From Owenia fusiformis (Eukaryota; Annelida; Polychaeta; Sabellida; Oweniidae), in contig CAIIXF020000002.1 of NCBI GenBank assembly GCA_903813345.2, forward strand, positions 9,571,555-9,635,554: 64,000 nucleotides of DNA, read 5' to 3'. A program made the position numbers and the translations under genes. Under the pieces are notes generated by a model. The model ran no database searches, had not been told where the DNA came from, and saw only the letters and a list, made by a program, of their open reading frames with translations. Of this stretch, positions 1 through 54,868 are shown piece by piece (position 1 is the stretch's first letter; every line of letters begins with the position of its first letter).

Positions 1-939
1 AATAGCCCAAAATTTGTCCAAAAATTCAAATTTTTCATGCTCAAGGCTGAATTATTTTGCCTTTTTTGCTACATTTATCAGTGCAGTGACAAGAAGTCTT
101 GTGGATAGCGCAACTTTTCCTGAACGTTTCTCTAATAAGATATTTTAATGACAAAATAACTACATTTAGTCTGGAATAAATTGTCACAAAATATAATGAC
201 CCCAGGGGTCAAGAGAACCCTATAAAATCAAAAGTGCTGAGAGGATTTGAGCAAAAATGTACATATCACTTCATAAAACCCCGAACTTTAAAATTCATAT
301 TGAACAAAATGCATATTCAGTCAACCATGACACTAATAGGGTCAATACAACTCACGTGGGATTTGTTTTGCTCATCGTATAGGAAAAGTAGTACTTAATA
401 CACTAGTTCGCTACTTTGTAGATGTATGGCACGTATATGTGTACATGTATTGGCAATTAATGTTTGGTGATAGCTAGTAGGAGTGTCAGGGACCGCTGAC
501 AGATTATTATTTTGAACCAAAAAATTGAATTATATTTTTGGCGGTCTCAGTAAATCAATGGGGTAATCAGGTCCTACGTGCTTTTTACAGGCCCAGAAAT
601 CAATGCTCGCTTATAAATGTAGCAAAATCTTTTTTCGTTCGTGGGATATTTTTTCCACCATATAACCGAACGGGAAGTTTTTGAATAGGACTACATGATC
701 TGAATGGATGAGAGGATTCGATGGGCTGGGATTTGAGAAATTATGATTTGAACTTTGCCAATTTTACATGTATTCCAATGGGTGAAAAAGTAAGTTGCTT
801 TCTACCTAATATGAACCACATTTATTAGTGAATTTCGAGAAATATGTCGAATTTAGCCATATTTCGCATATCTTTTTATGGAACCATTTAAAGTTTTGCA
901 AATTAACCCCTTAAATTCTGGAGACGACGATCTAAATTT

Positions 940-952
940 TGCTGAGTCAGCA
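940..952. promoter_or_regulatory. Perfect T-MARE-like palindrome in satellite unit 1
   Basis: TGCTGAGTCAGCA is a perfect palindrome around a central G and equals the classical Maf recognition element of the TPA type (TGCTGAC/GTCAGCA), with an AP-1 core TGAGTCA. It recurs in copy 2 at 2278-2290; copy 3 ends before this position. The match is seen; occupancy by a Maf/CNC or AP-1 factor is inference. Confidence 0.5.
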
Positions 953-2277
953 ATTTTCGTTTTTTCATTGAAAACAGTACTTTTCAGCCTAAATTGCTAC
1001 ATTTCTGCTCTCTTATCAAGTAATTTGATGCAGTTCTTGCCAAATTAAAGGAAACATACCCCAAACGTTCCACAGTGTGCGAAGTTCCAACATTTTGACC
1101 CTTTAAACCCACGAAAGACCCAATTTTAAAGGGACGTATTCAGTAAACCTGCACAAAAGACAATGCTACTTGAACTAGCCATCAGAAGTTCATGAAAAAC
1201 GAAAAATCAATGATGTTCAGTTTAGTAAAGTAGCAAATAGTCCTACTTATGAGAGAATATAAATCACTTAAGCAATTTGTACAACTTTAAACAGCTGTTT
1301 TAAGTAGATTAGTATCGTTATGGGCAAAAATCCCCCAAAATAGCCCAAAATTTGTCCAAAAATTCAAATTTTTCATGCTCAAGGCTGAATTATTTTGCCT
1401 TTTTTGCTACATTTATCAGTGCAGTGACAAGAAGTCTTGTGGATAGCGCAACTTTTCCTGAACGTTTCTCTAATAAGATATTTTAATGACAAAATAACTA
1501 CATTTAGTCTGGAATAAATTGTCACAAAATATAATGACCCCAGGGGTCAAGAGAACCCTATAAAATCAAAAGTGCTGAGAGGATTTGAGCAAAAATGTAC
1601 ATATCACTTCATAAAACCCCGAACTTTAAAATTCATATTGAACAAAATGCATATTCAGTCAACCATGACACTAATAGGGTCAATACAACTCACGTGGGAT
1701 TTGTTTTGCTCATCGTATAGGAAAAGTAGTACTTAATACACTAGTTCGCTACTTTGTAGATGTATGGCACGTATATGTGTACATGTATTGGCAATTAATG
1801 TTTGGTGATAGCTAGTAGGAGTGTCAGGGACCGCTGACAGATTATTATTTTGAACCAAAAAATTGAATTATATTTTTGGCGGTCTCAGTAAATCAATGGG
1901 GTAATCAGGTCCTACGTGCTTTTTACAGGCCCAGAAATCAATGCTCGCTTATAAATGTAGCAAAATCTTTTTTCGTTCGTGGGATATTTTTTCCACCATA
2001 TAACCGAACGGGAAGTTTTTGAATAGGACTACATGATCTGAATGGATGAGAGGATTCGATGGGCTGGGATTTGAGAAATTATGATTTGAACTTTGCCAAT
2101 TTTACATGTATTCCAATGGGTGAAAAAGTAAGTTGCTTTCTACCTAATATGAACCACATTTATTAGTGAATTTCGAGAAATATGTCGAATTTAGCCATAT
2201 TTCGCATATCTTTTTATGGAACCATTTAAAGTTTTGCAAATTAACCCCTTAAATTCTGGAGACGACGATCTAAATTT

Positions 2278-2290
2278 TGCTGAGTCAGCA
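2278..2290. promoter_or_regulatory. Perfect T-MARE-like palindrome in satellite unit 2
   Basis: Same 13-bp palindrome as at 940-952, exactly 1338 bp downstream. Confidence 0.5.
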
Positions 2291-3483
2291 ATTTTCGTTT
2301 TTTCATTGAAAACAGTACTTTTCAGCCTAAATTGCTACATTTCTGCTCTCTTATCAAGTAATTTGATGCAGTTCTTGCCAAATTAAAGGAAACATACCCC
2401 AAACGTTCCACAGTGTGCGAAGTTCCAACATTTTGACCCTTTAAACCCACGAAAGACCCAATTTTAAAGGGACGTATTCAGTAAACCTGCACAAAAGACA
2501 ATGCTACTTGAACTAGCCATCAGAAGTTCATGAAAAACGAAAAATCAATGATGTTCAGTTTAGTAAAGTAGCAAATAGTCCTACTTATGAGAGAATATAA
2601 ATCACTTAAGCAATTTGTACAACTTTAAACAGCTGTTTTAAGTAGATTAGTATCGTTATGGGCAAAAATCCCCCAAAATAGCCCAAAATTTGTCCAAAAA
2701 TTCAAATTTTTCATGCTCAAGGCTGAATTATTTTGCCTTTTTTGCTACATTTATCAGTGCAGTGACAAGAAGTCTTGTGGATAGCGCAACTTTTCCTGAA
2801 CGTTTCTCTAATAAGATATTTTAATGACAAAATAACTACATTTAGTCTGGAATAAATTGTCACAAAATATAATGACCCCAGGGGTCAAGAGAACCCTATA
2901 AAATCAAAAGTGCTGAGAGGATTTGAGCAAAAATGTACATATCACTTCATAAAACCCCGAACTTTAAAATTCATATTGAACAAAATGCATATTCAGTCAA
3001 CCATGACACTAATAGGGTCAATACAACTCACGTGGGATTTGTTTTGCTCATCGTATAGGAAAAGTAGTACTTAATACACTAGTTCGCTACTTTGTAGATG
3101 TATGGCACGTATATGTGTACATGTATTGGCAATTAATGTTTGGTGATAGCTAGTAGGAGTGTCAGGGACCGCTGACAGATTATTATTTTGAACCAAAAAA
3201 TTGAATTATATTTTTGGCGGTCTCAGTAAATCAATGGGGTAATCAGGTCCTACGTGCTTTTTACAGGCCCAGAAATCAATGCTCGCTTATAAATGTAGCA
3301 AAATCTTTTTTCGTTCGTGGGATATTTTTTCCACCATATAACCGAACGGGAAGTTTTTGAATAGGACTACATGATCTGAATGGATGAGAGGATTCGATGG
3401 GCTGGGATTTGAGAAATTATGATTTGAACTTTGCCAATTTTACATGTATTCCAATGGGTGAAAAAGTAAGTTGCTTTCTACCT

Positions 3484-5068
3484 TAGTAAACTGTGTATAA
3501 ACAAGGCATAAATGACAAATTCAGAACAGGACCGTGGTGTATTTCGTAAATAATAAGGTTTCAAACGCAATGTCGTTAGACGACTACGTATGACTTCTAT
3601 CGAATTCTATGGACGGTGACGTATTGTATTAGTTGTACATAAGATATTTAGCGGACCGCGGTTACGTGCATGTACATCTGTCAAGTCAAGGTTGCTAGAT
3701 CTGATAGCCTCTTTCCATGTTATTGTTATAATGGGTAAGAAATGGAATATTGAATTTCCTATATTTGGTTTCAGGACTCGCAAGAGACGCTCTTGTTTCA
3801 GCCTCTATAGGACAATGAAAAAAATTGTCACTTGCTTTATTTATGAAACCAATGAAAGTGTAAAAGATAGCAATGGAGAGGCAAAAGAAGATTTAGGATC
3901 AAGTACTGATGAAGATAAAAAAAATTAATAACAATGAATCGGGGTTTTATATTTGAATCAGGTTCGCGTAACCGTCCATCAATTTTTTACGTTACCGCAA
4001 ATTCAAAATACATTATTATGGCTTGAGTATAACATATTAGGTGGTTTCCAATGCTCAATTGGCTTTGTATGATCGTCTGTAGGTTAAATCGATTTACCCC
4101 AAGGTTTTAGGCAAGGTAGACCATGCCCTAACAACAAAAATAAACAAAAGTTTTGTGTAGTTTTGAATTTCAAACTCGACAGTTTTTCTCTTATCTCATG
4201 TTATCCCCGGGCATCAATTTGCAAAGACTACGTTCAAAATATACATTACTGAATGCATCACCGAATGCGACGCTTACGTAAATCGTCCATCCTTTCATTG
4301 ATACACAGTAGTAGAAAATAATGCACCAACCTTAGTTTTCTCTTCCATTTTATTGGATAAATCAGTGAACGTAGCCGTCCAACCTCGTTTTCAGAGGTGG
4401 CGTAACCGTCATGCTATAACACAGTGATACCTATAGGCTCATGTTTTGGTGAAGCAAGCGTAGTTGGCGTAGTAAACATACTATCATGTGGTTATTTTCA
4501 ATGAAATACCCGTAGCAGACGTAGCCGTCCGAACTTGCTCGAAGCATAATCCCAATTTCAATCGGATAAGGTCACGACTTTTCATAGAATGGTAATATCT
4601 ATTCCGTATAAATGTAAACAATACGACTAATACGAACACTACCGCGTAAATATGTAGATCTAGTTTGACTTTAAGGTGCAAATGAAATGTTTCTCAAATA
4701 AAAAAAATTAACCTTTCAGTATGTCCATGAGGGCCATGCTTTCAGTAAACAAGATTACATATACAATGCTTAAAGCATGGCTCAATTGATATGTCAAGCT
4801 TTTGGTATGCAGCACTAATTCCCTTTGAAGGAAAATAGATACATGTAGTTAGAAAAATTTACAAAGGACCAGTTCACTAAAAATAATAGATATACATGGT
4901 GTAACGGTAATAATTTATTTCAGATATCACATTTACTTTTGATCATTTTTAACTCCCTTCAACAAGACGTCGTTCGGCAATTTTCCATTTTCACTAGTGC
5001 GCTAAAACACGCATAGTGTTCTTTTGATTTTCAGGTGAGGTCGTCCTCTTTGATGTTGTGTCCGTTAG
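3484..5068. other. Non-coding span with recurring CGTAACCGTCC-type motif
   Basis: No gene recognised. A 78-aa frame at 3692-3928 (+) has a charged C-terminus (ends DEDKKN) and an internal acceptor-like TTTCAG near 3772, so it could be a terminal exon, but there is no other support. Between 3967 and 4530 the motif CGTA[A/G]CCGTCC and close variants occur five times (3967, 4277, 4370, 4401, 4520), denser than expected in AT-rich DNA. Confidence 0.4.
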
Positions 5069-5983: not shown

Positions 5984-6053
5984 ATGTCTATCAATCAGAT
6001 AGTTCGGGTTTTAGGATGTTTGATGGTTGCATATCTGTCAACACAAACAACAG
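5984..6053 (+). CDS. Gene A exon 1 (signal peptide)
   Basis: ATG opens 23 codons with a hydrophobic core (VLGCLMVAYL) ended by small and polar residues, then G|GTAAGT. An ATG three bases upstream (5980) is in another frame and meets a stop within a few codons. Exon ends in phase 1. Confidence 0.75.
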
Positions 6054-9000: not shown

Positions 9001-12000
9001 AAAAACGCCACTTTATTTCTTTTCAAGACACTATAACTTTTTTTATTTTCCAACCTATATACCCCAGTTTTGCAGTTACATAGTGCCAGTTTTTTTTTAG
9101 TAATAATATAATGTAAGAAGTACTTCAACTTGGATTATATTTGATCTAAAAGAGGAGCTCAATTGGGCCACCGTCTTTGATGATAGCTTTTAGTCTTAGT
9201 TGCCTTGCTGATATAGCACTAGTATCAGTGAAATGTTGGCTAAGTTTCTTTCAACATGTCTTAATTGCCAGCTTTAGTTGGGCAATTTTCTAGATTGGGT
9301 GCCCTCATACCATCTCCTGGAGACCTTCCAATACCCAATACTCACTGGGGTTTGCAGCAGGATTATTTGCTTGGTGACAGTATCAGTTCAGGAACATTTT
9401 GCAAATTATGTTTATTTCTCATGGCACACCACATGTTTAAGTGAGACGCTGGTGACATATTTTATTCAAGTAAAAGTGTACAGTTCATAATCCATGGCTA
9501 GATAGCATCGTCTAGTTTCATTTGGTATGCAAACTATGATTTTGTTCATAAATTAAAAAAGTTATAGCATTTTGAAAAAGTGGCGTTTTTTGGCCCACCC
9601 TAATACCCCTTCTTATTCCATAGGGTATCGACCATGTATCATTCTTGTAACTAATGGAAAAAAATCATTGTTAGTACTATATTTTACTTTTTTTTTATTA
9701 AACCATAGAATAATATTTCCAAACTATTTACTGGAACACCAGTATTGTCAGATACACCGTTGTCACAAATGGCGGCCACGGGTTCGTATTTGATTTGATT
9801 TTTCATTAACTGTAGCGCAAATTGAGATTTCATATAATACACCATCACAGGAGCTTGATATGCACTGCACAGAACAAGCGATGATAAAGTCCCATGAATA
9901 TGAGAACCAAGTGATTAAAGAGTTGAACCAACAACTAAGTCCGCTATTTGTGACAACGGTATCTGACTTTACCGGGTATTCCGGTGTGAAGGAAATTGAA
10001 TTGGGTCTATTTTCAAAGAAGCATTGTGACTTTGTCAAATGATCAGCATAAGGTTTGTGCTGCCCATGTCATGAGTTGTTTCATTGAGTAGAATGCGTAT
10101 TCAGTGATTTGTTTTATAATAGCAATACAGTTATCTCCAGAATCGTAACTAGAGTTGTGTAAAATGTAAGTAACTAAATACACATTTTGTCATTTTTTGT
10201 GACAGTATAAGTCACTGTGACATCGATATACTGAATACACTGTATGTATGTTTTAATCCATTGCAGGAGCATCTACATTACAATACGGCGTTAGAGACAA
10301 TAGACTATCTGACTATTTCCCAAGCTATTGTGAGAGTACTGGTCAATGTGACATCGATATACTGAATACACTGTATGTATGTTTTAATCCATTGCAGGAG
10401 CATCTACATTACAATACGCCGTTAGAGACAAGAAACTCTCTGACTATTTCCCAAGCTATTGTGACAGTACTGGTCAATGTGACATCGATATACTGAATAC
10501 ACTGTATGTATGTTTTAATCCATTGCAGGAGCATCTACATTACAATACGGCGTTAGAGACAAGAAACTCTCTGACTATTTCCCAAGCTATTGTGACAGTA
10601 CTGGTCAATGTGACATCGATATACTGAATACACTGTATGTATGTCTTAATCTATTGCAGGAGCATCTACATTACAATACGGCGTCAGAGACAGGAGACTC
10701 TCTGACTATTTTCCAAGCTATTGTGACAGTACTGGTCACTGTGACATCGACCCATATACTGAATACACTGTATGTATGTTTTAATCCATTGCAGGAGCAT
10801 CTACATTACAATACGGCGTTAGAGACAAGAAACTCTCTGACTATTTCCCAAGCTATTGTGACAAAACTGGTCAATGTGATATCGATATACTGAATACACT
10901 GTATGTATGTCTTAATCTATTGCAGGAGCATCTACATTACAATACGGCGTCAGAGACAGGAGACTCTCTGACTATTTTCCAAGCTATTGTGACAGTACTG
11001 GTCACTGTGACATCGACCCATATACTGAATACACTGTATGTATGTCTTAATCTATTGCAGGAGCATCTACATTACAATACGGCGTCAGAGACAAGAGACT
11101 CTCTGACTATTTCCCAAACTATTGTGACAGTACTGGTCACTGTGACATCGACCCATATACTGAATACACTGTATGTATGTCTTAATCTATTGCAGGAGCA
11201 TCTACATTACAATACGGCGTCAGAGACAAGAGACTCTCTGACTATTGCCCTAGCTATTGCGACAATACGGGCAACTTCGTTGAGGAGGTTACCTGCATTT
11301 CTCCCCCGTACTGTTGCGTTCAACGATCCGCTGGCGGGTTCGAAGGACTTAAATGCTGCGAAAATAGAATTGACCGAATAGACTCTTCTTACAGGGATGG
11401 CCATAATTGCAAGGAGAATGGAAGGAACAAAATAAAACTGAGTCGCAAGAGAAGAGGTGGGTTATAAATAAATTAAATTAATGATGATTCACCGTTACCA
11501 GTTAAATAATCATCATAGCTTCTCTAATTGATCAACTGTTCATTATTAAAATTTTGATGCGTATTTATCTAGACATCGATATACACTACACTATATAACT
11601 GTAAAATGGGTATATAGGTTGGAAAATAAAAAGGATATAGTGTCTTGAAAAAGTGGCGCTTTTTTGGCCCACTCTGTGCATGTGCTGCATAAAAACTATT
11701 ATATCCAAACTACAAATTAAAGTTCAACTTTCAACTGAAAATCTAAAATACGATTAACTCGATCGCTTCAGAAACCAAGCCTGTTGGTGAAGTGTGTCCA
11801 GCATTCTGTGTTGATGGGTCATGGCATGAGGCAGTGTACTGCATGAAGGGTTACTGCTGCGAGGAGACGACTTCCCCAGGACGATTCTCCCTCATATGCT
11901 GTTCAAATAGTAACAGTAGTGTCGTTAACAAATACAAACAGGGCCACAACTGTAGGAGTGCAGATATCTTAAACGGCTAGTAAGTACTTTAGCCTTCGTT

Positions 12001-13748
12001 TATTTTTCCTAGTAATTTTGTATCCATGTCCACTAGGGTCTCAACGTAAATGAGTCTGTGCAATAATATAGCCCGCCTTTCGGTAGCAGATTTTCAAAGG
12101 GGTTTTCTACATTTAAACCCATTTCTCATTAGGTTTTCTACATTAAACCCCATTTCTCAAAAGGTTTTCTACATTTAAACTCATTTCTCAAAAGGTTTTC
12201 TACATTTAAACCCATTTCTCAAAAGGTTTTCTACATTTAAACACATTTCTCGAACAATTTCTCCATCATCGTTTGCTTTGTTAGTTTCATTTGTGCGTTG
12301 GATAATTGCTTGGATGCGACCTTGTGACGGTTGCATTTTTCAAATGCTTCGTTTCTATGTTAATACATACAAACTTTTTATGCATATGTTCTCCACTCTT
12401 CTACTCTCTGCTATTACATACAGGGTGTCCAATAAATAAGGTGAAAGATATTGTAACTTTCTTAATATTGTACCATAATCTGTATTTAATAAAAGTGTTT
12501 AAAGAGAGAATCAGATATAGCGAGCAGGCTAAACAAAAAGTTGTTTCAATTTTAGAATATATTTGGCTCATGTCATTCCTTGTCATGTCTATTTTCTAAA
12601 AATCACAAAAGTGCATACTTTATTCATGGAAAACTAAAGATTTTTACAATAATGTATTATTTTTCTATAAGAATGGTTACCATTCTTATTATTTGGGAGA
12701 ATTTAAACATTTTTCACCCATTTTTGCACTTTGAATCATTAAATACGTCACCAGTTTATAACATATTGTGAATCTTTTGGGAGATATTGTAAGGAATAGA
12801 TCGGTAGGTCACTTATACATGTTGCTTGTAATTTTGTCAACCCCTATAGATCGGATTCTCCCTTTAATGTTGCAGTTGGAGCAGTATACTTTACTCTGGG
12901 ATTGTACTTGGTGGCTTCACTTTGCTACTCTCACTATGCATCTACTGTTACCAGTGCTGCAAAGACGGATTCAAGCTCAAGAGACACAATCGGCCAAGAC
13001 CCTCACGGCCTCCGAACAATAATTGTAAGTTCTATAATAGAGTTTATGCCTATGAAGGAAGAAGGATGTCAGTCTAAGTCATATCGATATATTAATTTGT
13101 GGTATAACATACTAGTTTTTTTTGACAATAATAGTGAACGAAAACATTGGTTTGGCAGTATGACTGAAAGAATATACGTGTTTAACATTAATTATGGCTG
13201 AAAGAAAACACTTGTTAAACAGAATGACTGAATACAGTGCGGGTCATAGTATTGCGCTATACCACAGTGTATTTCATTCCATTGCATTGCTTTGTATTGC
13301 ATCGTATTTTATTGTGCTCTATAATATGGTATTGTATTGTATATCACATTTTATTATCACAGTATATCAAGTAGAACAATGCGGAAAGATTTTCCTCTTC
13401 ATGTTTATGATGTTACTAGTGACTGTCGTAAATTGCAAGTTTGTAAGCATAAGAAACATGGTGTATAAATTGAATATTTCATGTAACGCCATATTGGAAA
13501 CTTTACATCCTTCTATGACCGTACACTGAGAGTATGATAAATATTCATTTTTATTTTTTTCATCAACAGCAACGAACGGTGGAACCGTCGGCAGCATATC
13601 CAGTTCTGTTCCAGAGAGAGACTCGCCAGACCCACCATCTCCGCCCAGTTACGACAACATCAATATGACTCCGCCTGGACCATATTCATCCGAGCCAATT
13701 ATGCCCCCGCCTTACAGCACAGAGAAACCACCTCCTTACGTACCATAG
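5984..13748 (+). CDS. Gene A: Shisa-like type I membrane protein, two Cys modules, PY-motif tail (5 exons)
   Basis: Coding exons are 5984-6053, 11196-11456, 11772-11979, 12876-13024 and 13570-13748, joining in phases 1, 1, 2, 1 to a 288-aa product with all GT-AG borders. Residues 1-23 form a signal peptide. Residues 41-95 and 119-171 are two related modules with the same spacing plan: C-x3-C, C, CC, CC, C (Cys 41, 45, 57, 63-64, 77-78, 95; and 119, 123, 134, 139-140, 153-154, 171). Residues 184-206 are one membrane span followed by Cys/Lys/Arg. The tail is proline-rich with PPSY 254-257, PPPY 275-278 and PPPY 283-286. The architecture matches the Shisa/WBP1/VOPP1 superfamily of adaptor-like membrane proteins; PY motifs in that group bind WW domains. 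Two cysteine modules rather than one is unusual. The model is inferred by hand without transcript data; substrate or partner is unknown. Confidence 0.8.
6136..6308. mobile_element. Hairpin MITE in intron 1 of gene A
   Basis: Arms of about 45 bp are near complements: ATTCGCAAATTTAA..CCGGCTGACGGATTAACC on the left, and GGTTAATCCGTCAGCCGG-type sequence (read as complement) on the right. The centre holds CATATTTAAATGA. A related hairpin sits in intron 1 of gene B (18570-18759). No coding. Confidence 0.7.
6309..8990. other. Intron 1 of gene A, no feature recognised
   Basis: AT-rich intronic sequence. Short open frames here lack splice support and homology I can recognise. It contains poly-C runs near 7579 and 8514. 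Confidence 0.5.
8991..9601. mobile_element. 611-bp TIR transposon derivative in intron 1 of gene A
   Basis: Left end AGGATGGGCTAAAAACGCCA and right end are inverted copies (right, complemented: AGGGTGGGCCAAAAAACGCC). Similarity continues inward for about 50 bp through CACTTT, TTCAA and CTATAACTTTTTT. The left end is preceded by TAC. The interior may hold decayed transposase sequence on the minus strand but nothing I can assign. A truncated relative lies at 11606-11676. Confidence 0.65.
9750..9968. mobile_element. Short inverted-repeat element in intron 1
   Basis: CAGATACACCGTTGTCACAA at the left is matched by the complement of GTCAGATACCGTTGTCACAA at the right (about 27-bp arms, one indel), with about 165 bp between. 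No coding is supported. Confidence 0.5.
10200..11260 (+). repeat. Tandem array of the exon 2 splice acceptor plus exon 5' part (8 copies)
   Basis: The segment holding the end of intron 1, the TTGCAG acceptor and about 70 bp of exon 2 is repeated head to tail. Acceptor-downstream bases fall at 10267, 10398, 10529, 10660, 10795, 10926, 11061 and 11196, so periods are 131 or 135 bp; the 4-bp difference is an inserted CCCA. Only the last copy continues into the full exon. The others jump at a GTGACAGTA-like word back into intron sequence; that word also occurs in the intron at 10200 and resembles GCGACAATA in the intact exon, so microhomology may have mediated the first duplication. Upstream copies read GACTATTTCCC (Phe) where the functional exon reads GACTATTGCCC (Cys 41). 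Frames running through the array are by-products of the repeat. Confidence 0.93.
11196..11456 (+). CDS. Gene A exon 2 (first Cys module)
   Basis: Follows TTGCAG and ends AGAAGAG|GTGGGT, phase 1 to 1, 261 bp. It encodes residues 24-110 including Cys 41 to Cys 95, and ends in a basic KLSRKRR stretch that could be a proprotein-convertase-like site between the two modules (inference). Confidence 0.8.
11606..11676. mobile_element. Truncated relative of the 8991-9601 element (intron 2)
   Basis: Contains TATATAGGTTGGAAAATAAA, then TAGTGTCTTGAAAAAGTGGC and TTTTTTGGCCCACTC, the reverse complement of the left end of the 611-bp element. Only one end is present. Confidence 0.55.
11772..11979 (+). CDS. 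Gene A exon 3 (second Cys module)
   Basis: Follows GCTTCAG and ends GGCTA|GTAAGT, phase 1 to 2, 208 bp. It encodes residues 111-179 with CPAFC, GYCC and ICC, paralogous to exon 2 (both modules end with GHNC). The duplicate exon explains the two-module protein. Confidence 0.8.
12101..12255 (+). repeat. 31-bp minisatellite in intron 3 of gene A (5 copies)
   Basis: GGTTTTCTACATTTAAACCC followed by ATTTCTCAAAA restarts at 12101, 12132, 12163, 12194 and 12225. Unlike the other arrays in these genes it does not touch a splice border. Confidence 0.9.
12876..13024 (+). CDS. Gene A exon 4 (transmembrane segment)
   Basis: Follows GTTGCAG and ends AATAATT|GTAAGT, phase 2 to 1. It encodes one hydrophobic span (about residues 184-206) followed by CYQCC and a basic stretch (FKLKRHNRPRP), consistent with a type I protein with a cytoplasmic tail. 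Confidence 0.8.
13570..13748 (+). CDS. Gene A exon 5 (PY-motif cytoplasmic tail, stop)
   Basis: Follows ATCAACAG, phase 1, and stops at TAG 13746-13748. It encodes residues 230-288, rich in Pro and Ser, with PPSY, PPPY and PPPY. The stop is two residues after the last PPPY, a placement typical of C-terminal PY ligands. Confidence 0.82.
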
Positions 13749-14216: not shown

Positions 14217-15041
14217 GCATTTTACCAGAATGTGTTAGCATAATGTCATTTGAGGCCACGAAATAACGTGATCAAGTGTATGTTTTTTATATTATAAGAT
14301 GACAAATACAAAAGTCTGCTTCATAATCACCCATTAAAGAATGCAGGGGATCAATGAACGAAATGATTTTTTTGCACACCTTTTGAGAGTTTGATCAAGT
14401 TGGAGAAAGGTTGATTAAAATTATGTAAAATAACTCATTTTTTAAAAGTGTGATATCACGAAATTTATTTGATCTAAAGTTGATCACTTGTCAAAGCATT
14501 GCTCTTACAGTTTGATTTAGCATGGAGCCATCTATTAGCAGTATACAACTACATTAATACAGTCAAAAACTGTCAATTGGTTATAGCCATCTGATAGAAC
14601 ACGTGAAATATTATTTACTGAGCTGAAATATCAACTCCCCAGGTAATATGATGAACAATTACATACAAGGTTTTTAACTAATCTACATTTATAAGTAACG
14701 TGATTTATATTCAGAATGAGACTTTGGCCTTAATACCGTTACCGTTACATTGAAGGAAATGTCGCAAAATGTTTTCATAAATAAAACTGTGGATGATTGG
14801 CTCCTAGAGTGCAACATCGATATTTTCCCCCATATATGTACATGTCGTGATGACAAAATTCGAATTGAAACAGCCGCCTTATTGTTCACTTCATCATTTG
14901 GATCGTGAATTTTGGTCTTTTGGACTATTTATTTTGAATTTTTAAACAACAAAATTTTGACGTTTTCGATTCATTGTTGGAAAATATCGAGTTTGGATCC
15001 TTGGAGCCAATTCTTCTTGAATAAAACTTAATAGTTCTCAC

Positions 15042-15388
15042 TCGGTGCTATATTCCTTTTTGAGGTTTATGCCTCTATTTGTCTATCTGAAATGCTGCAT
15101 TGTCAAACGAAACAGTTTTCCGATTTGCCTGGGGTTTGTTATGATTATGTGATCCCGCAATAGGTTGTGAAAATGACGATGGACGATTGTCATTGTCTTT
15201 AAGATTATGAACAGCTCGGTGCTATATTCCCTTTTGAGGTTTATGCCTCTATTTGTCTATTTGAAATGCTGCATTGTCAAACGAAACAGTTTTCCGATTT
15301 GACTGGGGTTTGTTTTGATTATGTGATCCCGCAATAGGTTGTGACAAGGACGATGGACTGGCATTGTCTTTAAGATTATGAACAGCTG
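15042..15388 (-). repeat. 174-bp tandem duplication over the 3' end of gene B
   Basis: CTCGGTGCTATATTCC begins at 15042 and again at 15215, and the following about 170 bp match closely, with a few substitutions and short indels. The copy nearer the body of gene B carries the real stop (15249-15251); the other, further 3', still encodes the same last residues (FDNAAFQIDK then stop), so it is a vestigial second C-terminus in the 3' UTR. Confidence 0.85.
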
Positions 15389-15958
15389 TTGTTTTTGCTT
15401 GGTTTACCCTGTTGGTGACATTTGTCACTGTGGACGAGTCATCTGGTAATTTAGTTAGATCACCGTTAGACTGTTGTTCAGCATTTGAACCTGATGTAGC
15501 TTCCAACGCACTTTCATTTGTAATTCCTCTTGTAGCAACATTTTCTATTTCACTCGGTATGGCAGGAAGTGGGATTGCGCATGCGTTATCATATGTCGTT
15601 TGTCTTCTGCTATTTGCAGCATTGTATGAAAGTGTAGTTGTTGTAGGAACACACATAGGCGTTTCTGACTCAGCAGTGACACACCCGGTTGCGTGTGTAG
15701 TTGTCTGATTCTTATTAGCAGATGTATTAACGACACTACTATTCGATGTAGTATCAACTGCAACAACCAACCCACTTACTGCAGCGTTATGGGATACACG
15801 AACCGTAGTTGCAGCAGAGTTAGGTGTTATTTGACTGGTTTGTGATTGTTCTGTAAATGGAGGGGGGTCTCCCGCTATCTCATGGTACGCCGGGGGTTGA
15901 TAGATTGGATAGTTAAACTCTGGAACAGGTCCGGCCGAAAGAATAATTTCTTCGTGTT
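15249..15958 (-). CDS. Gene B exon 5 (cytoplasmic tail, stop)
   Basis: Begins after TTTATAG; the G left from exon 4 completes GAA for residue 172. It encodes 236 residues: acidic start, PPAY and PPPF, then a low-complexity Ser/Thr/Asn tail ending FQIDK. Its 3' end is tandemly duplicated. Confidence 0.8.
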
Positions 15959-18934
15959 CTATAAAAAACACAAGCATGTCCAATCAGTTTATTTAAAACA
16001 GTTTAATGTAATTCTCAATTTATTATTTTAAATATATCAAAAATGTTCCCTAAAACGAACAAAATAAAAGGAACTATAATGACAGTACCATTCTTTGAAC
16101 GCAGTATTCCAAGGGGTACGCAGACTGGGGTACGACCAAAAAATGATCCCAATTATTTTTTTAATTCGTAGGCATCCTGAATAATGACCCATTCCAAAGG
16201 TAGACTTAACTACCCATAATAACCCATATGCATACCTGTTATTCCTCCATTGGCACGAATAGTCGCTTGTGAATTGTTGTTTGTGTCTTGTCTTGTACGG
16301 CTTGCCATTGTTCTTGATCTAGTGGCTGTAAACTGCGCTTTGGAACAACCAAAGAAACAACACATACCACATGTTAGGAGAATTATAATTGCCGTGAAAA
16401 CACCAAGGACGATCCTCCATCTGTAATACATATATAGAGGAAAGACTTATTCTCAGTTTATTCAGTCTTTTATTGTTGCTGGAGAAATAAAACACGAAGT
16501 GACCAAACGATCAGACTAATTAATGATGACGATAAGGGTTTTATTCACGTAAAGGCATGCGTTGTGAATTGTTTAACACGTTTTTATCAAATATAGGTCT
16601 TTAATTTCTTACTAAAATTAAAAAATGACTTTTAAATACTATGATGCGGTGAAATGCAAACACTAAAGATTCTACTATCAACATGTAATTACTGATCAAT
16701 CTAACTTCAAGGGCCGTAGATATATGATGTAAATGTTTAACGTGGTATCAGCCAGCGCATCACTTCTAAACGTTTCTAACTTTTATATAGGGTTTTAATG
16801 AATCATGTTTTGCTGTATGTTATTTTTATTTCTTTAAAAAAATATATGAAAAACAAACTTCAAAATGCAAAATACTTTTTATGGCAGCTTGGACAGTTCC
16901 CTCTCATGTCAAACCAGTGGTTTCTTATTCTTAAATAATGAGTGTTCTGGGAAAGTATACTCGTCAGCACCAGCAGGGAAATAAAAAGGCACTCGACATG
17001 AGTACACTCGCCAAGAGACTGATAAGCACGCGTTAGAATTTTACCATGTTTTCCCATGTGAATCATAACATTGGCTTTCAACTATGAGAATCATAGCGTG
17101 GTTTTACATATGAGAATCATACAGCATATTATGTGGTTTTACCTATGAGAATCATACAGCATATTATATGGTTTTACCTATGAGAATCATCCAACATATT
17201 ATATGGCTTTACCTATGAGACATGTTTCTTACGCAGTGGTAGCGCTCGGGATAGAGGCCGGCAATACTTGAGTCGGGGTCATTGCAGCAGAATCTAAAAA
17301 GAAAGAACACGGTAAGGAAAAGATGGATGAAAACAGGATATAGCTTAATAAAATATGGCATGATCTGCTGAAAATTTAAAATTTTGACATTTTGTAATAG
17401 TAGATTCATTTAGCAATGTCATCAAAGTTAGTCAATTTTATTTTTAATTCAAGTTTTTTTTTTACATAATTGGAATGTAGCCTGTGGTATAGTAACCTTA
17501 TGACAAATGATGCTGTGTAAATGCAACTTCAGTTTTATAATTCCGGTAAGGTTATTTTTGATCTTGAATATTGGGCAAAATATAGTCGACCTCCTAATGC
17601 TTAGGAGCGACTGATGATGAAAATGATAGGCATAAGATACGACGTACCAGATTATAGTTAAATTGACATAACATACGACGTACATGATGCAGTTGAATTG
17701 ACATAAAATACGACGTAAATGATGCAGTTGATTCGACATGAAATACGACGTACCTGATGAAGTTGCATTGACATGAATACGAACTACGTGGTGTAGTTGA
17801 TTTGACATGAAATACGGCGTACCTGATGCAGTTGAATTGACATAAAATATGACGTACTTAATGCAGTTGCATTGACATGAAATACTGCTTAACCGATGCA
17901 GTTGAATTGACATGAAATATGACGTAGCTGATGCAGTTGTATTGACATGAAATATGACGTACCTGATGCAGTTGTATTGACATAAAATATGACGTACCTG
18001 ATGCAGTTGCATTGACATGAAATACGGCTTAACTGATGCAGTTGAATTGACATGAAATATGATCGGGGACGTACCTGATGCAGTTGGATTGACATGAAAT
18101 ACAACGTACCTGAAGCTCTGGGTTCCACAACAGTAGAGTGTAGTGTTTGTTCCGTGGCGTTGAACTGTTTCTTTGAGTGCAACTGTTCCTTTTTGTGCCA
18201 CTGGTGGTTTAATGAACATACCACATACAAACCCTGGATGCCATGCCCCACGTCGATCACAGTAACTGGTACAATACTCAAGGCCGTGTACCAACCCTAA
18301 ATGAAAAACCAATATGTTGGAATTGCAGTGTACTAACGTCAACGCGTATCACAACTTCAAAAAATAAACTGTTGTTTTAAGTAACGTCACAAACCAAATT
18401 AGAACATCTTCCTCAAGAGTCATCACAGGATACAAAACAATTGTAGATGAGTAGAAACCGAGATATATATATCAGATAGCGGTTTATGCAAAGGCTCCGT
18501 AACATAACATTGACATGGTATACTGCCTCGAGATCATATCTAGTCAGAATACCGTATTAGTGTATAATACTAAGCTTGTATTCGCAAATGCAACTTGCGT
18601 CTGACGACTACCGGATTGACCTGCTATGTTATGGGCAACTCGTTTAAATATGAATAGTGCCTGCCACTGCTCCATTCATATTTAAATGAGTTGGTCATAA
18701 AAGAGTAGGTTAATCCGGTAGCTGACAGGCGTTAGTTGCATTAGCGATTACAAGCTTAGACTCATTTTTGGTATAGCTGTGGTTGAAACTATATAGGTTC
18801 AGATATCGAAGAATTTTATGAAAATATTGATGTAATTAATATATTTAATACAACAAAGTAGTACAGTACTTACCAATACAACAAATCAGCAACACACAAC
18901 CACGATATATTACACAACTTGACATAGCTATCAT
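15249..18934 (-). CDS. Gene B: Shisa-like type I membrane protein, one Cys module (5 exons)
   Basis: Coding exons in transcript order are 18934-18874, 18296-18110, 17293-17213, 16420-16236 and 15958-15249, phases 1, 2, 2, 1, product 407 aa, all GT-AG. Residues 1-20 are a signal peptide. The Cys module spans residues 29-103 (CTSYC, C45, CC 76-77, CC 85-86, C103), with YCCGTQ...RFCC strongly recalling Shisa family cores; an extra about 25-residue insert separates C45 from CC 76-77. Residues 113-133 are one membrane span ending in a Cys-rich GMCCFFGC. The long tail has a PPAY motif (193-196) and DPPPF, then about 200 Ser/Thr/Asn/Ala-rich, probably disordered residues. It is a convergent, diverged paralogue of gene A. 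Hand-built model; function beyond family architecture unknown. Confidence 0.8.
16236..16420 (-). CDS. Gene B exon 4 (transmembrane segment)
   Basis: Begins after ATTACAG and ends ATAACAG|GTATGC, phase 2 to 1. It encodes the span IVLGVFTAIIILLTCGMCC and a basic/polar juxtamembrane region. Confidence 0.8.
17085..17222 (-). repeat. 35-bp repeats carrying the exon 3 donor of gene B (about 5 copies)
   Basis: TGAGAATCAT-type anchors occur at 17085, 17111, 17146, 17181 and 17216, with the last three steps exactly 35 bp. On the minus strand each unit reads CTCATAG|GTAAA.., so the true donor (exon end 17213) is the first of four or five near-identical donors. The sequence is unrelated to the 35-bp array in intron 2. 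Confidence 0.85.
17213..17293 (-). CDS. Gene B exon 3 (end of Cys module)
   Basis: Begins after TTTTTAG, ends CTCATAG|GTAAAG, 81 bp, phase 2 to 2. It encodes FCCND...YHCV, supplying the second CC pair and last cysteine of the module. Confidence 0.75.
17641..18111 (-). repeat. 35-bp repeats carrying the exon 2 donor of gene B (about 13 copies)
   Basis: TTGACAT anchors fall near 17663, 17698, 17732, 17768, 17802, 17837, 17872, 17907, 17942, 17977, 18012, 18047 and 18089; nearly every step is 34-36 bp (7-bp insertion before the last). On the minus strand many units read CATCAG|GTACGTC, matching the real exon 2 border (AGCTTCAG|GTACGT at 18110/18109), so the array multiplies the donor site. Long open frames across it cycle through the repeat and are not genes. 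Confidence 0.9.
18110..18296 (-). CDS. Gene B exon 2 (most of the Cys module)
   Basis: Begins after CATTTAG; the G from exon 1 plus GG gives Gly 21. It encodes residues 21-82 including YCTSYC, a GAW..GFVC stretch and YCCGTQSF, then splits AG|A (Arg 83) at the donor. Ends in phase 2. Confidence 0.78.
18570..18759. mobile_element. Hairpin MITE in intron 1 of gene B
   Basis: Arms from TAAGCTTGTATTCGCAAATG inward, through CTACCGGATTGACCTG, are matched in complement by the right half (TAGGTTAATCCGGTAGCTGA and beyond). The centre CATTCATATTTAAATGA is shared with the intron 1 hairpin of gene A, as are ATTCGCAAAT and CGGATT[A/G]ACC. Confidence 0.7.
18874..18934 (-). CDS. Gene B exon 1 (signal peptide)
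   Basis: ATG at 18934-18932 opens 20 codons with hydrophobic core CVLLICCI, then G|GTAAGT. A second in-frame ATG three codons on is an alternative start. Confidence 0.7.
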
Positions 18935-21843
18935 ATTATACACAACGCATATTGTGGCAAAACTAAAATTCCAAATATTAGAACTTCAACGCGTTGCTCC
19001 AAGTCTGTAACTACCAATCTATACGTCAATATGTGCATATAAAGTAGAATATTATTCTAACCCAATTTGGTTTAAGTCCACATTTTGCTCTCATTACTAC
19101 ACTTGAACTGAGTTTTAATACTATAAGGGTATTATATGGGATATTATTTTAGACATTATCAGTACTGAAAATGAGTATAAATGATCGGACGCTAAGTGTC
19201 TACTTACAGAGGGCAATTAAAAAGTAGTCAGCGTTACTGATGCCCACTGGTGAATATCACAATGTTACGTAGCAAATAAGGAATGTTTTTGTGTAATTGT
19301 AAACGGACAAATGATAGCTGGCAAATTGTCACAACAATTATACAAATGTATATTTTATTCTATTATTCTACATAATAACAACTCGAACCTCTTGAACACC
19401 TCAAAATTTACAATATCCTTTCATGTCTACAAAAAATACTTTGATATAAGAAAACTGAAAATTATCATTAGGATATTTAACTTCAGCATTCTTGGAACAT
19501 ATGATCCACAGATTTAGTATTTCCGAGACCTAGAATTAGTAGTCCGAAGCGTACTTGTATACCTTAAAGCCCCCGATAAATCGGGCTACGTATACCACCG
19601 TGTTTACATTAGGGGATTAGAAGAGTTTATTTTTTACTTAGGTATGCAAGCAATATCAATATTAGGCCTTCATACATGTACTCGTGTGTACAATTAGCAT
19701 GCACTTCAATATTATATAAGCCAGGCTATTCAAGTACAACATAATGTACACTATTTATGTGTGTACTACATGAGAATACAATTCCCTGGGAAACAAAACA
19801 AAAATACTTTTTATATGTTCAAAATGAGCCATTTGATTGATGCATACACTTGATACCTCCATATATAAAAGTATATCTAATAGTTATTTTCAATTCCAAT
19901 GTTGAAACTTGCCTGGTTACGATTATACGGGAAATCAACACGGGACCATAGTTGTACACCTTCCTGGCTTACCTCTGAAGCCTGTACCCTGTAATCTCTT
20001 TATATAGGTTAGCGAGAGCGCTGCGCCTGCGCAGTTTTAAATTTTGGCGCACACTTTAATTGGTTTTTCAGAAATGGAAATCCGACTGGAAAACACGTCC
20101 GTAGTCATTTTTCATTGACATTTATAGCTGGGAAAATACATACAAATTGGACAAACAAATGGACCACTTTTATCCAACTTTTATGTGGTCGTTTTTCGGC
20201 GTTCGGCAGTCGGCGTTCTGAGTTCGGCGTCTGTAACAAATGGCAGGTGGTGACATTTTGCATGTTAATGTTTGTTTATAACTATAATTAATGTAAACAC
20301 ATTAGCAAAATAAATAAACATACTTAAATGTAATACTATTACATTAGCATGAATAATTAATGACAGGTGTTTCTTAATTTACACCGGAGATTATATAATA
20401 TTATATTTCATTTATGTATTATATATATATTATATAATTATATATGTATATTGCTTTTTAAGCAATTAACACTTTTTGAGCATTGATGGTCCATAAATGA
20501 CTAGTTTTGAGTGAAACGGAACTGATCTTGTAGGTATCTTTGCTTTGGAGGTTAAATTGGTAAAAATGATATTCGAGGCGACCTTTTTTAATATACTTTA
20601 ATTCTACAAATCGAATATTTGTCTGAAAATGAGTGAAGAAATTCATCTCAGATTTGTTTTGGGGATACTATGTACATTATATATGTGTTTCTTCCAATAT
20701 AACGTACATTACCATAACAGGTGTGTTATCGACTTGTAAAACATACTACACATGTAGTATACTATCACCACAGTGTAAAATATGATTCTTTATTTTTTAA
20801 TCAACTCACAACTCTAGTTCCGATTAACATCAGCTGTGTACTGAACGAAAATCAATTATCAATTAAAATGAACCCCGTTATATCAGATAGAACTATGAAT
20901 TGTTGCCATGTGTTAATATTTATTGCTATATAATGTCAACTCAATAGCCTTTGGCATAAAAGTAATATCCTGGTTCGCTCACTGCCAAAATAAAGCGTGC
21001 TGTCCAAATAATGGTCACTTAAATACCGGGCCAAAATATAACTGACAAGACAATAGTGAAAGAGGAAGGAAGCGACGAACATGATGATGTTCCACTAGTC
21101 TAGAACGCCGTGGGCGACAATACCGGTGTAGTACAAGTAAAGGAAATAACATAACTTCCATTTCCTGAAAACCAATTTACATCGTTGAATAATAGGAACC
21201 ATACTTCCTTAAAAAGGATGCTGTAGTAGCTGGATATATTCAGCTAAACGGTGACAGTTTAACATGACGTACCGTACGTTTGGTGATGGACATCGACTTA
21301 TCATTTGAACGTCTGAACGTAATTTTAAATGTCATTGATGATTGACAATCAAGGAGTGTCAACGTGGTTTTAACAACAAAGACCTGGGATGTAAAGATTA
21401 CAACATGTAGTCTACATAAAGCATAGACCTCTATGACACGGTCACTACGTCATTGGAATTACTTAGAGCTACCAATAGTGAAAAATAATGTCATTTTAAT
21501 TAATTGACAAACATAAAGTTTAGATCCTAGGTTGCTCGTTGAAGTTAACGAGGTACTAAAAACGTGAACATCGTACAACAAAAACATTCCCGCACTAGAC
21601 TTCAGACATTTATGTTCAATGTTTAAAGCCCATGGGCTAACAAACCACGTGATTCGAAAGTCCATAGACTCTATAAGGTGTGAATTTTAAAGTCGTAAAA
21701 TGTTTTAAAAATAAAAGGGAGCTAAGAATCCAACAACTTGCCCATCTGGACATTATATTGATACAATAGCACTCGGTGTTCCATGTATCGAATATTCAAA
21801 ACGTAAAAAAATTCAGTATACCTACAAGAGAGTTTTCGCAATA
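18935..21843. other. Intergenic span between divergent gene B and SLC26-like gene
   Basis: Must hold the promoters of both genes. Seen: an AT-rich simple stretch at 20389-20455 (TATATA-rich), a TCGGCGTTC-type short repeat at 20190-20232, and AATAAAAGGG at 21710-21719, a possible TATA-like element 125 bp before the SLC26 start. Short open frames here lack support. Confidence 0.4.
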
Positions 21844-24027
21844 ATGAAGAAACTAAGCAACACATCAGATGAACAACGAATTGAGATAAATCGAAGCATA
21901 TACAAACAAGACATATTCAATGAGACTTTCAAGACAGACACGAATAAGGAAAAATCAAGTTGCATACAATCAATGTGCTCAAAGGTCGACTGCTCTTCTA
22001 CAAAATGGAAGGAACACTTGGCGACGTTATTCCCATTTGCGCATACAATTAAACATTACGAATGGCGGCGGCAGCTTTTGGGTGACGTAGTTGCAGGGCT
22101 TAGCGTAGGGGTACTCCATGTACCACAGGGAATGGGATTCGGCCTTCTTGCGGGTCTTTCACCAGTCTACGGACTATACTCTTCATTCTTTCCAGTCCTG
22201 GCATATTTCTTCTTTACATCATCGCGTCACGCATCATTTGGTACAATGGCACTTACGGCGTTGATGGTGGGTGTCGTGGTGAACCGCCACATGGGGCCTT
22301 CTCCGATGGAAGCTCCCCTTGATGATGTAACAGGCGAAGTGGGAACAACAATGGATCCATATCTACAACATGAAATGATGGGGGGCAGGATTATGATGGC
22401 TACATCTCTAACGTTACTAGCTGGACTGATCCAAATAGTGATGAGCCTATTGAGACTAGGCTTCCTGACTGTGTATATGTCCCAGCCCTTTATGAGTGGA
22501 TTCATGACAGGCGCCGCTGTACACATTATCACGAGCCAAATGAAGTTCCTCACAGGGATGTCTGAATCAGTGAAAACTAAAAATGGATATTTCAAAATAT
22601 TCAAAACGTATCAAGATATCGCAGCGAGACCAGAGCTTATCAACTATGCTGATGTTATTGTGTCTGCAGTTGCCATTGTAACACTTGTTATCCTCAGGAC
22701 TGTGGCTGTGAAATGTCAGAAGAGGTTCAATATACCTCTTCCCTGCGAGTTGTTGATCATTATATTCGCAACAATGGGATCCTACTTTGTTGGATTATCA
22801 ACGAGATTCCACACAAGAACGGTGGGCATGTTACCCATCGGTTTACCCATGCCAGTTGTGCCGGATTTCAACCATGTACAGAGTTACTTCACTGACGCTA
22901 TCATTATAGCGATTGTCGGTTTCGTGGTGTCCATCTCTATGACAAAGATCATCAGTGAAAAGTACAACTACGAAGTTAATTCAAACCAAGAACTTTTTGC
23001 GTATGGATTTGCAAATACGATAGGCTCGTTTTTCCATTGTTTTGCAGGAGCCGTAGCTCCTCCTAGAACGCTCATCAGAGACGCATGCGGAGGCAAAACG
23101 CAGCTCAGTAGCCTGGTGTCCTGTATGGTTGTTCTCGTTGTTATATTAGGCATCGGACCATTGTTCAAAGATCTTCCGAACAGTGCCTTAAGCTCCATCA
23201 TCGTCGTCGCCGTATCTCCTCTCCTCATGAAGTGCAAAGATCTGTTGAAATATTGGAAGATCAACCGCTTTGATGCTAGCACATGGCTCATTACGTCACT
23301 CTCGATTGTAATACTTGACATCGATGTCGGATTGATTATCGGGATAGGATACAGTTTACTATCGGTCATAATTCGTACTCAGCTCGCTAGTTCTTACACT
23401 GTAACCAACATAGAGAAAACGGAGCTGTATGTCAAAAATCCTAGGATGGACGACGCTATTAAGATATTCAAGTACGACGGTCCAGTGTACTATGGCAATG
23501 CTGAAATGTTCAAAGCCAGGCTTTATTCTAAAACGTATGACCCATCTTCAGAAGCAGACGACCGCATAAATAGCAAACGTGAGCATCTGAAGGAGAATAT
23601 AACACAGGAGATACCGGTGTCATCTATTAGCAATGGACTTTCGCAGAATATTCACATAACAAACCATGATAAGAACAAAAATGCGACTCATGCAATCACT
23701 GACCCGCATAAAGTAGTAATCATTGACTTCAGTTGTGTGTCCTTTATTGATGTTGTGGCCATCAACACTTTAATTGATACACACAAGACATTCAGACTAT
23801 CGGGCGTCCAAATGTTCATTGCGGGTTGTACTGATAGCGTCTATGATAGCCTAAAGACGATTGAAAATACTGAAAAAGAGAAGCCAGAAAACGATTTGTT
23901 GAATAACATATTTGTCACAGTACATGATGCAGTGAAATATGTACACTCAATGAACCAATGGACAGACATAACACCACCGAATCAATCTTACAGTGTAAAT
24001 CTGACAAATGAAACATCAAAATTATAA
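21844..24027 (+). CDS. SLC26/SulP-family anion transporter, single-exon
   Basis: A 727-aa uninterrupted frame. A cytoplasmic N-terminus leads into the conserved SulP start (DVVAGLSVG at 81-89, VPQGMGFGLLAGL 93-105, YGLYSSFFP 109-117, the sulfate-transporter signature region). Multiple membrane spans run to about 510; NQELFAYG (381-388) and GGKTQ (416-420) frame the TM10 anion-site region. A STAS domain covers about 525-705 (IKIFKYDGPVYYGNAEMF at 539-556, VVIIDFSCVSFIDVVAI at 624-640) with a variable insert near 565-620. Family members exchange sulfate, chloride, bicarbonate, oxalate or iodide at the plasma membrane; the substrate cannot be told. Length is typical of SLC26. At the TM10 site it has APPR (405-408) where many members have SxSR, keeping only the Arg. 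Animal SLC26 genes usually have many introns, so this is either a retrocopy under constraint or an intron-loss lineage. It is intact, so it is unlikely to be a dead copy. Confidence 0.93.
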   Translation: MKKLSNTSDEQRIEINRSIYKQDIFNETFKTDTNKEKSSCIQSMCSKVDCSSTKWKEHLATLFPFAHTIKHYEWRRQLLGDVVAGLSVGVLHVPQGMGFGLLAGLSPVYGLYSSFFPVLAYFFFTSSRHASFGTMALTALMVGVVVNRHMGPSPMEAPLDDVTGEVGTTMDPYLQHEMMGGRIMMATSLTLLAGLIQIVMSLLRLGFLTVYMSQPFMSGFMTGAAVHIITSQMKFLTGMSESVKTKNGYFKIFKTYQDIAARPELINYADVIVSAVAIVTLVILRTVAVKCQKRFNIPLPCELLIIIFATMGSYFVGLSTRFHTRTVGMLPIGLPMPVVPDFNHVQSYFTDAIIIAIVGFVVSISMTKIISEKYNYEVNSNQELFAYGFANTIGSFFHCFAGAVAPPRTLIRDACGGKTQLSSLVSCMVVLVVILGIGPLFKDLPNSALSSIIVVAVSPLLMKCKDLLKYWKINRFDASTWLITSLSIVILDIDVGLIIGIGYSLLSVIIRTQLASSYTVTNIEKTELYVKNPRMDDAIKIFKYDGPVYYGNAEMFKARLYSKTYDPSSEADDRINSKREHLKENITQEIPVSSISNGLSQNIHITNHDKNKNATHAITDPHKVVIIDFSCVSFIDVVAINTLIDTHKTFRLSGVQMFIAGCTDSVYDSLKTIENTEKEKPENDLLNNIFVTVHDAVKYVHSMNQWTDITPPNQSYSVNLTNETSKL

Positions 24028-54520: not shown

Positions 54521-54730
54521 TATTAGACTCCAGATTGAAAATCTGGAGTCTATTGCTTTTGCCAGTTTTCTTCTTATTAGACTCCAGATTGAAAATCTGG
54601 AGTCTATTGCTTTTGCCAGTTTTCTTATTAGACTCCAGATGAAAATCTGGAGTCTATTGCTTTCGTCAGTTTTCTTTATTATTAGACTCCAGATTGAAAA
54701 TCTGGAGTCTATTGCTTTTGCCAGTTTTAT
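54521..54730 (+). repeat. Four tandem hairpins, 51-54-bp period
   Basis: AGACTCCAGATT-GAA-AATCTGGAGTCT is a perfect 12-bp-arm hairpin; it starts at 54525, 54579, 54630 (one base shorter) and 54684, each followed by ATTGCTTT[T/C]G[C/T]CAGTTTT. The block abuts the start of the large array. Confidence 0.92.
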
Positions 54731-54855
54731 TATTATTATTATTATTCTTTCCGAACCAGTTTTCTCAGCAACTAGAAGACCTTACTCAAATCTACTTACA
54801 GGGTCAGTAAGGAGATGAGATCTAGTTTCTGGGAAATTAGGTTAAATTTTTATCT

Positions 54856-54868
54856 AGGTCAAAGGTCA
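54856..54868 (+). promoter_or_regulatory. Perfect DR1 nuclear-receptor-type repeat
   Basis: AGGTCAAAGGTCA is two AGGTCA half-sites one base apart, the DR1 layout used by HNF4 and RXR-type receptors. The same 13-mer recurs at the start of other super-modules (58612, 60831, 62778), amid many single AGGTCA words. Sequence match only. Confidence 0.4.

What the first reader, a model, noticed from the sequence alone, without database searches (positions are those of the whole stretch)
10200..11456. Eight tandem copies of a splice acceptor and exon start in gene A
The border of intron 1 and exon 2 is multiplied with a 131/135-bp period. Seven upstream copies keep TTGCAG and about 70 bp of exon, but break off into intron sequence and have Phe in place of the first conserved Cys. 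They are decoy half-exons that could compete for splicing; each also has an ACT|GTATGT-type donor, so they could act as 106-110-bp cassette exons, mostly causing frameshift or stop. A GTGACAGTA word at the junction suggests microhomology-driven duplication.
Basis: partly seen in the sequence, partly recalled or inferred. Interest (0 to 1): 0.78.

Follow-up and report, generated by a model that had tools for sequence, protein, structure and literature searches.

The report
Splice-site tandem arrays like lancelet mirages
One exon border of a membrane-protein gene has been copied eight times in a row, and the same kind of border copying turned up in ten other genes looked at in this genome, including housekeeping genes, so it resembles the "mirages" described in lancelets rather than a special device of this one gene.

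Summary
Gene A is a five-exon Shisa-like gene whose frame is complete through the last copy.
It is not unique. Paralog A2 has a separate 159-bp duplication of the same acceptor. Neighbour gene B has two donor arrays; its paralog B2 has an acceptor duplication and a donor array. Of 12 CCT/kinesin loci fetched for compactness, not repeats, 6 carry a border-straddling duplication; one further kinesin has 18 acceptor copies.
This anatomy is named: lancelet "mirages", reported not to disturb regular splicing (PMC3087553). The genome here (12 contigs of 32-62 Mb; Eryth_link_C matches) is probably not a lancelet.
Most likely: duplication by microhomology and unequal exchange in a repeat-rich genome, tolerated because the outermost copy keeps the frame. 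Decoy competition is possible but undemonstrated; chained cassette exons are unlikely (25-nt gaps; 28 of 28 isoforms modelled are broken).

The parts
5984..6053 (+). Gene A exon 1 (signal peptide), donor G|GTAAGT, phase 1
   Evidence: sequence and frame
10197..11268 (+). 131/135-bp tandem array straddling the intron 1/exon 2 acceptor of gene A, 8 acceptors
10267..11195 (+). Seven decoy units (exon starts 10267, 10398, 10529, 10660, 10795, 10926, 11061), each about 75 nt of exon 2 start plus intron end
11196..11456 (+). Productive exon 2 of gene A (Cys-rich)
11772..11979 (+). Gene A exon 3 (second Cys-rich module)
12876..13024 (+). Gene A exon 4 (transmembrane)
13570..13748 (+). Gene A exon 5 (Pro-rich PPxY tail, stop)
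18874..18934 (-). Gene B exon 1
18110..18296 (-). Gene B exon 2, Shisa_N match over cut-off
17637..18113 (-). 35-bp donor array (about 13 units) starting at the exon 2 donor of gene B, ...CAG|GTACGT
17213..17293 (-). Gene B exon 3
17072..17220 (-). Donor array (35-bp units near the exon, shorter units further in) at the exon 3 donor of gene B, ...TCTCATAG|GTAAA
16236..16420 (-). Gene B exon 4 (transmembrane)
15249..15958 (-). Gene B exon 5; its 3' end lies in a 174-bp duplication (15041-15387)

Best explanation
The array is a 'mirage': a minisatellite made of an exon-intron boundary. A first tandem duplication joined exon 2 (about nt 75) to intron 1 (about 60 nt upstream of the acceptor) at a short stretch of similarity. 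Unequal exchange then expanded it to eight copies, including a copied two-unit block. The extra copies sit on the intron side, so the productive transcript uses only the outermost copy (last acceptor; in donor arrays, first donor), which alone keeps the frame, probably helped by exon definition from the intact downstream part of exon 2 and its donor. The decoys are mostly neutral passengers, perhaps causing a low level of non-productive splicing. Shown: anatomy, frames, recurrence in paralogs and in unrelated genes. Inferred: which acceptor is used, neutrality, order of events.
For: Array and variants. Similarity in the register of the junction, 15 of 21 with A2's exon. Two-unit block: 10488-10753 and 10754-11019 are 99% identical; copies 4 and 6 differ at 2 of 131 positions. 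Copy 7 equals the real exon over its first 51 nt and the real acceptor over 60 nt upstream, so site strength cannot separate these two. Copy 8 gives a complete five-exon frame; 28 of 28 other models do not. Duplications at the same acceptor with other breakpoints: A2, 159 bp with 31 nt of exon and part of a dispersed repeat; B2, 133 bp with about 100-107 nt of exon. A/A2 exon 2 dS 0.47 against 6 mismatches in 159 aligned positions between A2's two copies, so A2's event is younger than the gene split. Donor arrays in B and B2. 6 of 12 control loci and an 18-copy kinesin. Background: 4.6% of 160 kb of arbitrarily placed pieces lies in arrays of period >=25. Same structures in lancelets without reported splicing defects (PMC3087553, PMC3902484).
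Against: No RNA data exist here, so use of only the last acceptor is inferred. Borders in the control loci carry somewhat more arrays than random placement predicts (6 against 3.2, P=0.058), and 6 of 32 borders in A/A2/B/B2 have one, which may point to something beyond passive tolerance; the exon lists of the controls are incomplete, which inflates that contrast, and gene A was picked for its array. Six of 12 control loci show no border array, and none was visible at exon level in the P450 and myosin searches (only 92 of 720 and 65 of 210 candidates were scored).
Confidence: 0.72

Rival explanations
1. Regulatory decoys: the upstream acceptors capture a fraction of transcripts, giving premature stops and nonsense-mediated decay, so copy number tunes gene output.
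For: Every decoy use modelled in gene A is broken: 7 of 7 read-through, 7 of 7 single cassettes, 14 of 14 multi-cassettes; A2's decoy stops at the junction and B2's soon after. Decoy acceptors are intact: 7 of 7 in A, 17 of 17 in the 18-copy kinesin.
Against: A2's breakpoints differ and its decoy lacks gene A's ACT|GTATGT. In the older donor arrays the first base of GT is changed in 9 of 29 decoy units (my count), in gene B's exon 2 array one of the less conserved columns, so there is no sign of preservation. Lancelet mirages are reported not to interfere with regular splicing. Similar arrays sit in unrelated housekeeping genes.
Confidence: 0.15
2. A splicing- or transcription-linked mutational process makes tandem duplications preferentially at exon borders.
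For: 6 border arrays of 9 local arrays in 12 control loci, 3.2 expected (P=0.058); by my reading five separate events in four related genes (the exon 3 donor arrays of B and B2 counted once).
Against: Not significant; arrays are common in arbitrary sequence; no common sequence at the breakpoints was shown.
Confidence: 0.12
3. Assembly artefact.
For: Tandem arrays are prone to copy-number error in assemblies; one lancelet mirage was aberrantly assembled in a draft.
Against: Units carry distinct substitutions and a 131/135 mosaic; paralogs and unrelated genes have different arrays. Copy number, not existence, is what could be wrong.
Confidence: 0.03

Closest known systems
Lancelet 'mirages' (Adh3, globins BflGb6/BflGb9, TnC, PGBD5); PMC3087553 (abstract and passages seen), PMC3902484 (one passage seen)
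   Same: Minisatellite-like tandem duplications spanning an intron/exon boundary, both acceptor and donor side, units of tens to about 160 bp, authentic border at one end of the array, splice signals in many copies, homogenisation within the array
   Different: Here in a genome that is probably not a lancelet; 2-18 copies (3 and 6 in the globin haplotypes); in 6 of 12 loci fetched without regard to repeats; homogenisation reaches into the productive copy; splicing not tested here
Human CBS 844ins68 (PMC2630376, passages seen)
   Same: Duplication of an intron 7/exon 8 junction; the distal site is strongly favoured
   Different: 68 bp, two copies, a polymorphism in one gene
Potato RdRp gene (PMC4974935, abstract and passages seen)
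   Same: Duplication across the intron 1/exon 2 boundary that leaves a former exon piece on the intron side
   Different: There a new intron formed via a cryptic donor; here all extra copies are predicted to be removed with one long intron
Variable internal tandem repeats at human exon-intron boundaries (PMC2812944, first part of Results read)
   Same: Minisatellites at exon-intron boundaries altering gene structure in recent paralogs
   Different: Units of 30 bp on average, detected as differences between paralogs in segmental duplications

Membership tests
Mirage (boundary-spanning minisatellite) | Tandem repeats that include both intron and exon sequence across a splice site | tested here: met
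Mirage (boundary-spanning minisatellite) | Authentic boundary is one copy of the array, at its exon-side end | tested here: met
   Only copy 8 gives the complete frame
Mirage (boundary-spanning minisatellite) | Copies retain splice signals | tested here: met
   8 of 8 acceptors
Mirage (boundary-spanning minisatellite) | Homogenisation inside the cluster by unequal exchange, cluster boundary left out | tested here: inconclusive
   Two-unit block 99% identical and copies 4/6 nearly identical fit; but copy 7 equals the productive copy over 51 nt of exon, so the boundary copy is not left out
Mirage (boundary-spanning minisatellite) | Length differences between haplotypes | not testable with these tools
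   one assembly; the DNA search found only A and A2
Mirage (boundary-spanning minisatellite) | No interference with regular splicing | not testable with these tools
   no RNA reads
Shisa family (Pfam Shisa_N) | Shisa_N over its curated cut-off | tested here: not met
   Gene A 11.8 bits, cut-off 22. Neighbour gene B 24.7 bits, over the cut-off. Gene A is called Shisa-like only, from its Cys pattern, TM segment and PPxY tail
Intron gain by tandem duplication | A new intron between retained exon copies | not testable with these tools
   needs RNA; 0 of 28 modelled uses of the copies keep the frame

The most novel reading that the evidence does not exclude
In this lineage splice borders are hot spots of tandem duplication, linked to transcription or splicing itself, so that a sizeable part of all genes carries several near-identical acceptors or donors and the spliceosome must regularly choose the last of up to 18 near-identical acceptors; copy number would then be a heritable dial on splicing efficiency.
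Probability: 0.13. Interest if true: 0.8.

Novelty: new member of a known kind. Interest (0 to 1): 0.5.

Why it matters
The papers I opened that use the name mirage in this sense (PMC3087553, PMC3902484) are on lancelets and treat single genes; other papers in the listings were not opened. Finding such arrays in half of a small set of conserved genes in what looks like a lophotrochozoan would make them a feature of other animal genomes too, a possible source of new introns, and a natural experiment: arrays of near-identical acceptors (copies 7 and 8 of gene A are identical over 60 nt upstream) let one read from ordinary RNA data whether position and exon definition, rather than site strength, decide splicing. 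They would also mislead gene prediction.

Tried and rejected
Cassette-exon chain: rejected, 25-nt gaps and no in-frame product. Transposon as the unit in gene A: the DNA search matched only A and A2 (it skips very common words); in A2 part of the unit belongs to a dispersed repeat, but the duplication also includes exon sequence, so it is not an insertion footprint. Shared ancestral array of A and A2: breakpoints differ and the copies within each gene share private bases; not strictly excluded because of homogenisation. Selection on decoy donors: no clear signal. Border enrichment: suggestive only. In that test I used nine local arrays; left out were arrays of period under 25, a pair in L051 spaced 588 bases and a pair in L057 spaced 381 bases; exon edges were HMM match edges, one exon of L055 was added and one match of L059 was split by hand, and the observed count of 6 is my reading of the sequences, not the program's criterion. 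P450 and myosin searches showed no border array at exon level (92 of 720 and 65 of 210 candidates scored, and short exon pieces would not show); the myosin cluster on C9 looks like ordinary mutually exclusive exons. Six other Shisa-like loci (L043, L044, L046-L049, about 3 kb each): no array overlapping the Cys-rich frame by TRF. TRF missed the A2 duplication, so TRF-based counts are lower bounds. Species: not determined; Owenia was a guess from recall, and the papers searched gave no check.

Full report
Observation. The array is as described. Eight TTGCAG|GAGCATC acceptors lie at the stated positions, spaced 131,131,131,135,131,135,135, inside a TRF array at 10197-11268 with 93% matches. Each of the seven upstream units keeps about 75 nt of the exon and then passes into intron sequence. 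All seven have Phe for the first conserved Cys.

Gene. Five exons give one open frame: signal peptide, two Cys-rich modules, a transmembrane segment and a PPxY tail (these labels are my reading of the sequence). This is Shisa-like architecture; gene A itself is below the Shisa_N cut-off (11.8 against 22 bits), its neighbour gene B is above it (24.7 bits). Gene B lies on the opposite strand at 15249-18934 and also has five exons in one frame.

Consequences of decoy use. Reading from a decoy into the real exon (7 of 7), including one decoy as a cassette (7 of 7), or two or more non-adjacent decoys (14 of 14; the script's 20 combinations include 6 single ones) gives a stop or a lost frame. The decoy donor is 25 nt from the next acceptor, shorter than the smallest usual animal introns (general knowledge). 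Copy 7 and the real copy are identical over the 60 nt before the acceptor and the first 51 nt of exon; the other acceptors differ from the real one at 0 or 2 of the last 25 nt. So the choice can hardly rest on acceptor strength.

Origin. Exon and intron are similar in the register of the junction: 15 of 21 with A2's exon, 13 of 21 with A's own exon. Among 30,690 pairs of 21-base windows, 3 reach 15 with A2's exon, the junction itself and its direct neighbours presumably among them, and 17 reach 13 or more with A's exon. A 266-base block (10488-10753) recurs at 10754-11019 with 99% identity, and copies 4 and 6 differ at 2 of 131 positions, pointing to a copied two-unit block.

Recurrence in relatives. 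The genome holds a second cluster on the same chromosome with paralogs A2 and B2. A2: two copies of the same acceptor, period 159, only 31 nt of exon, and part of the unit belonging to a dispersed repeat; its two copies differ at 6 of 159 aligned positions plus two gaps, against dS 0.47 between A and A2 in exon 2. B2: acceptor and about 100-107 nt of exon 2 doubled, period 133, 97% match, and a degenerate array of about 25-bp units with ATAG|GTAAAA-like sites at the exon 3 donor. B: about 13 units of 35 bp at the exon 2 donor and a related array at the exon 3 donor. In all, 6 of the 32 splice borders implied by four five-exon genes, a lower bound; exons 4 and 5 of A2 and exon 5 of B2 were located only by BLAST match. 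Gene A was chosen for its array.

Recurrence in unrelated genes. A kinesin search intended as a control showed one exon repeated 18 times at about 159-bp spacing on C2 (122 of 218 candidates scored). All 18 copies have CCATAG|ATTCAC; the last runs on into the full exon, the others, read by eye, run into TAA. I then fetched 12 compact loci, 5 of the CCT (Cpn60_TCP1) and 7 of the kinesin family, chosen by exon spacing, not by repeats. Six have a border-straddling duplication: L052 acceptor, at least four copies; L054 donor, two; L055 acceptor, two; L057 acceptor, four; L059 donor, three with decayed decoy sites; L061 acceptor, three plus a fragment. L051, L053, L056, L058, L060 and L062 have none that I found. 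Random placement of nine local arrays in these loci predicts 3.2 border hits; 6 were seen (P=0.058). That is suggestive only: some exons are missing from the list (see Tried and rejected for what was left out). In 20 pieces of 8 kb at arbitrary places, arrays of period >=25 cover 4.6% of the bases. So plain abundance of tandem duplication, with tolerance at borders, goes most of the way.

Comparison. PMC3087553 (abstract and passages seen) describes 'mirages' in lancelet globin genes: tandem duplications of the 3' intron end plus 5' exon part, 150-160 bp, 6 and 3 units on two haplotypes, also a donor-side case, with RT-PCR suggesting no interference with regular splicing, and proposes them as a source of introns. 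PMC3902484 (one passage seen) adds PGBD5 and TnC. Human CBS 844ins68 (PMC2630376, passages) is a two-copy case with the distal site favoured; a potato gene (PMC4974935, passages) turned such a duplication into a new intron. Gene A's array meets the three anatomical features of mirages that I tested; one difference is that homogenisation reaches into the productive copy.

Which organism. G000 has 498 Mb, of which 12 contigs of 32-62 Mb hold 477 Mb, 34% G+C in the arbitrary pieces, and three matches to Pfam Eryth_link_C, best 38.1 bits. That this is the annelid erythrocruorin linker domain, and that Branchiostoma has 19-20 chromosomes and higher G+C, is recalled. So this looks like a lophotrochozoan, possibly an annelid; the species was not identified.

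Mechanism and verdict. Most likely a neutral or nearly neutral mirage grown by microhomology-mediated duplication and unequal exchange, with productive splicing to the outermost copy. Which acceptor is used, and any effect on output, remain to be measured in RNA. The class is known; its breadth here and its presence outside lancelets under that name were not met in the literature searches made, whose listings were in part capped (for example 10 of 43) and mostly not opened.

Noticed in passing
window 17637-18113 and 17072-17220 (-): Two donor-side tandem arrays in gene B, the neighbour of gene A; the exon 3 array has a degenerate counterpart in B2.
   Followed up: yes
L050 (G000:C2:23266200-23269900): Kinesin gene with 18 near-identical copies (97% by TRF) of an acceptor plus about 135 nt of exon at about 159-bp spacing; only the last copy continues into the full exon.
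   Followed up: yes
window 15041-15387: 174-bp duplication covering the 3' end of gene B's last exon including the stop codon.
   Followed up: partly
window 1-4000: The same ORFs recur at 1338-bp spacing (180, 1518, 2856), a long tandem repeat beyond the TRF period limit.
   Followed up: no
window 54500-64000: 133-bp and about 476-bp satellite-like arrays and 12-bp CTACTTACTCAG arrays.
   Followed up: no
window 21715-24027 (+): Sulfate permease/STAS (SLC26-type) gene in a single open frame of 770 codons.
   Followed up: no
L048 407-1177: 256-bp x 3 array (98%) just upstream of a Cys-rich open frame; TRF shows no such array in the similar locus L049.
   Followed up: no
G000:C9:37986009-37994334: Cluster of myosin-head exon copies (profile about 18-84) spaced hundreds of bases apart, probably mutually exclusive exons.
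   Followed up: no
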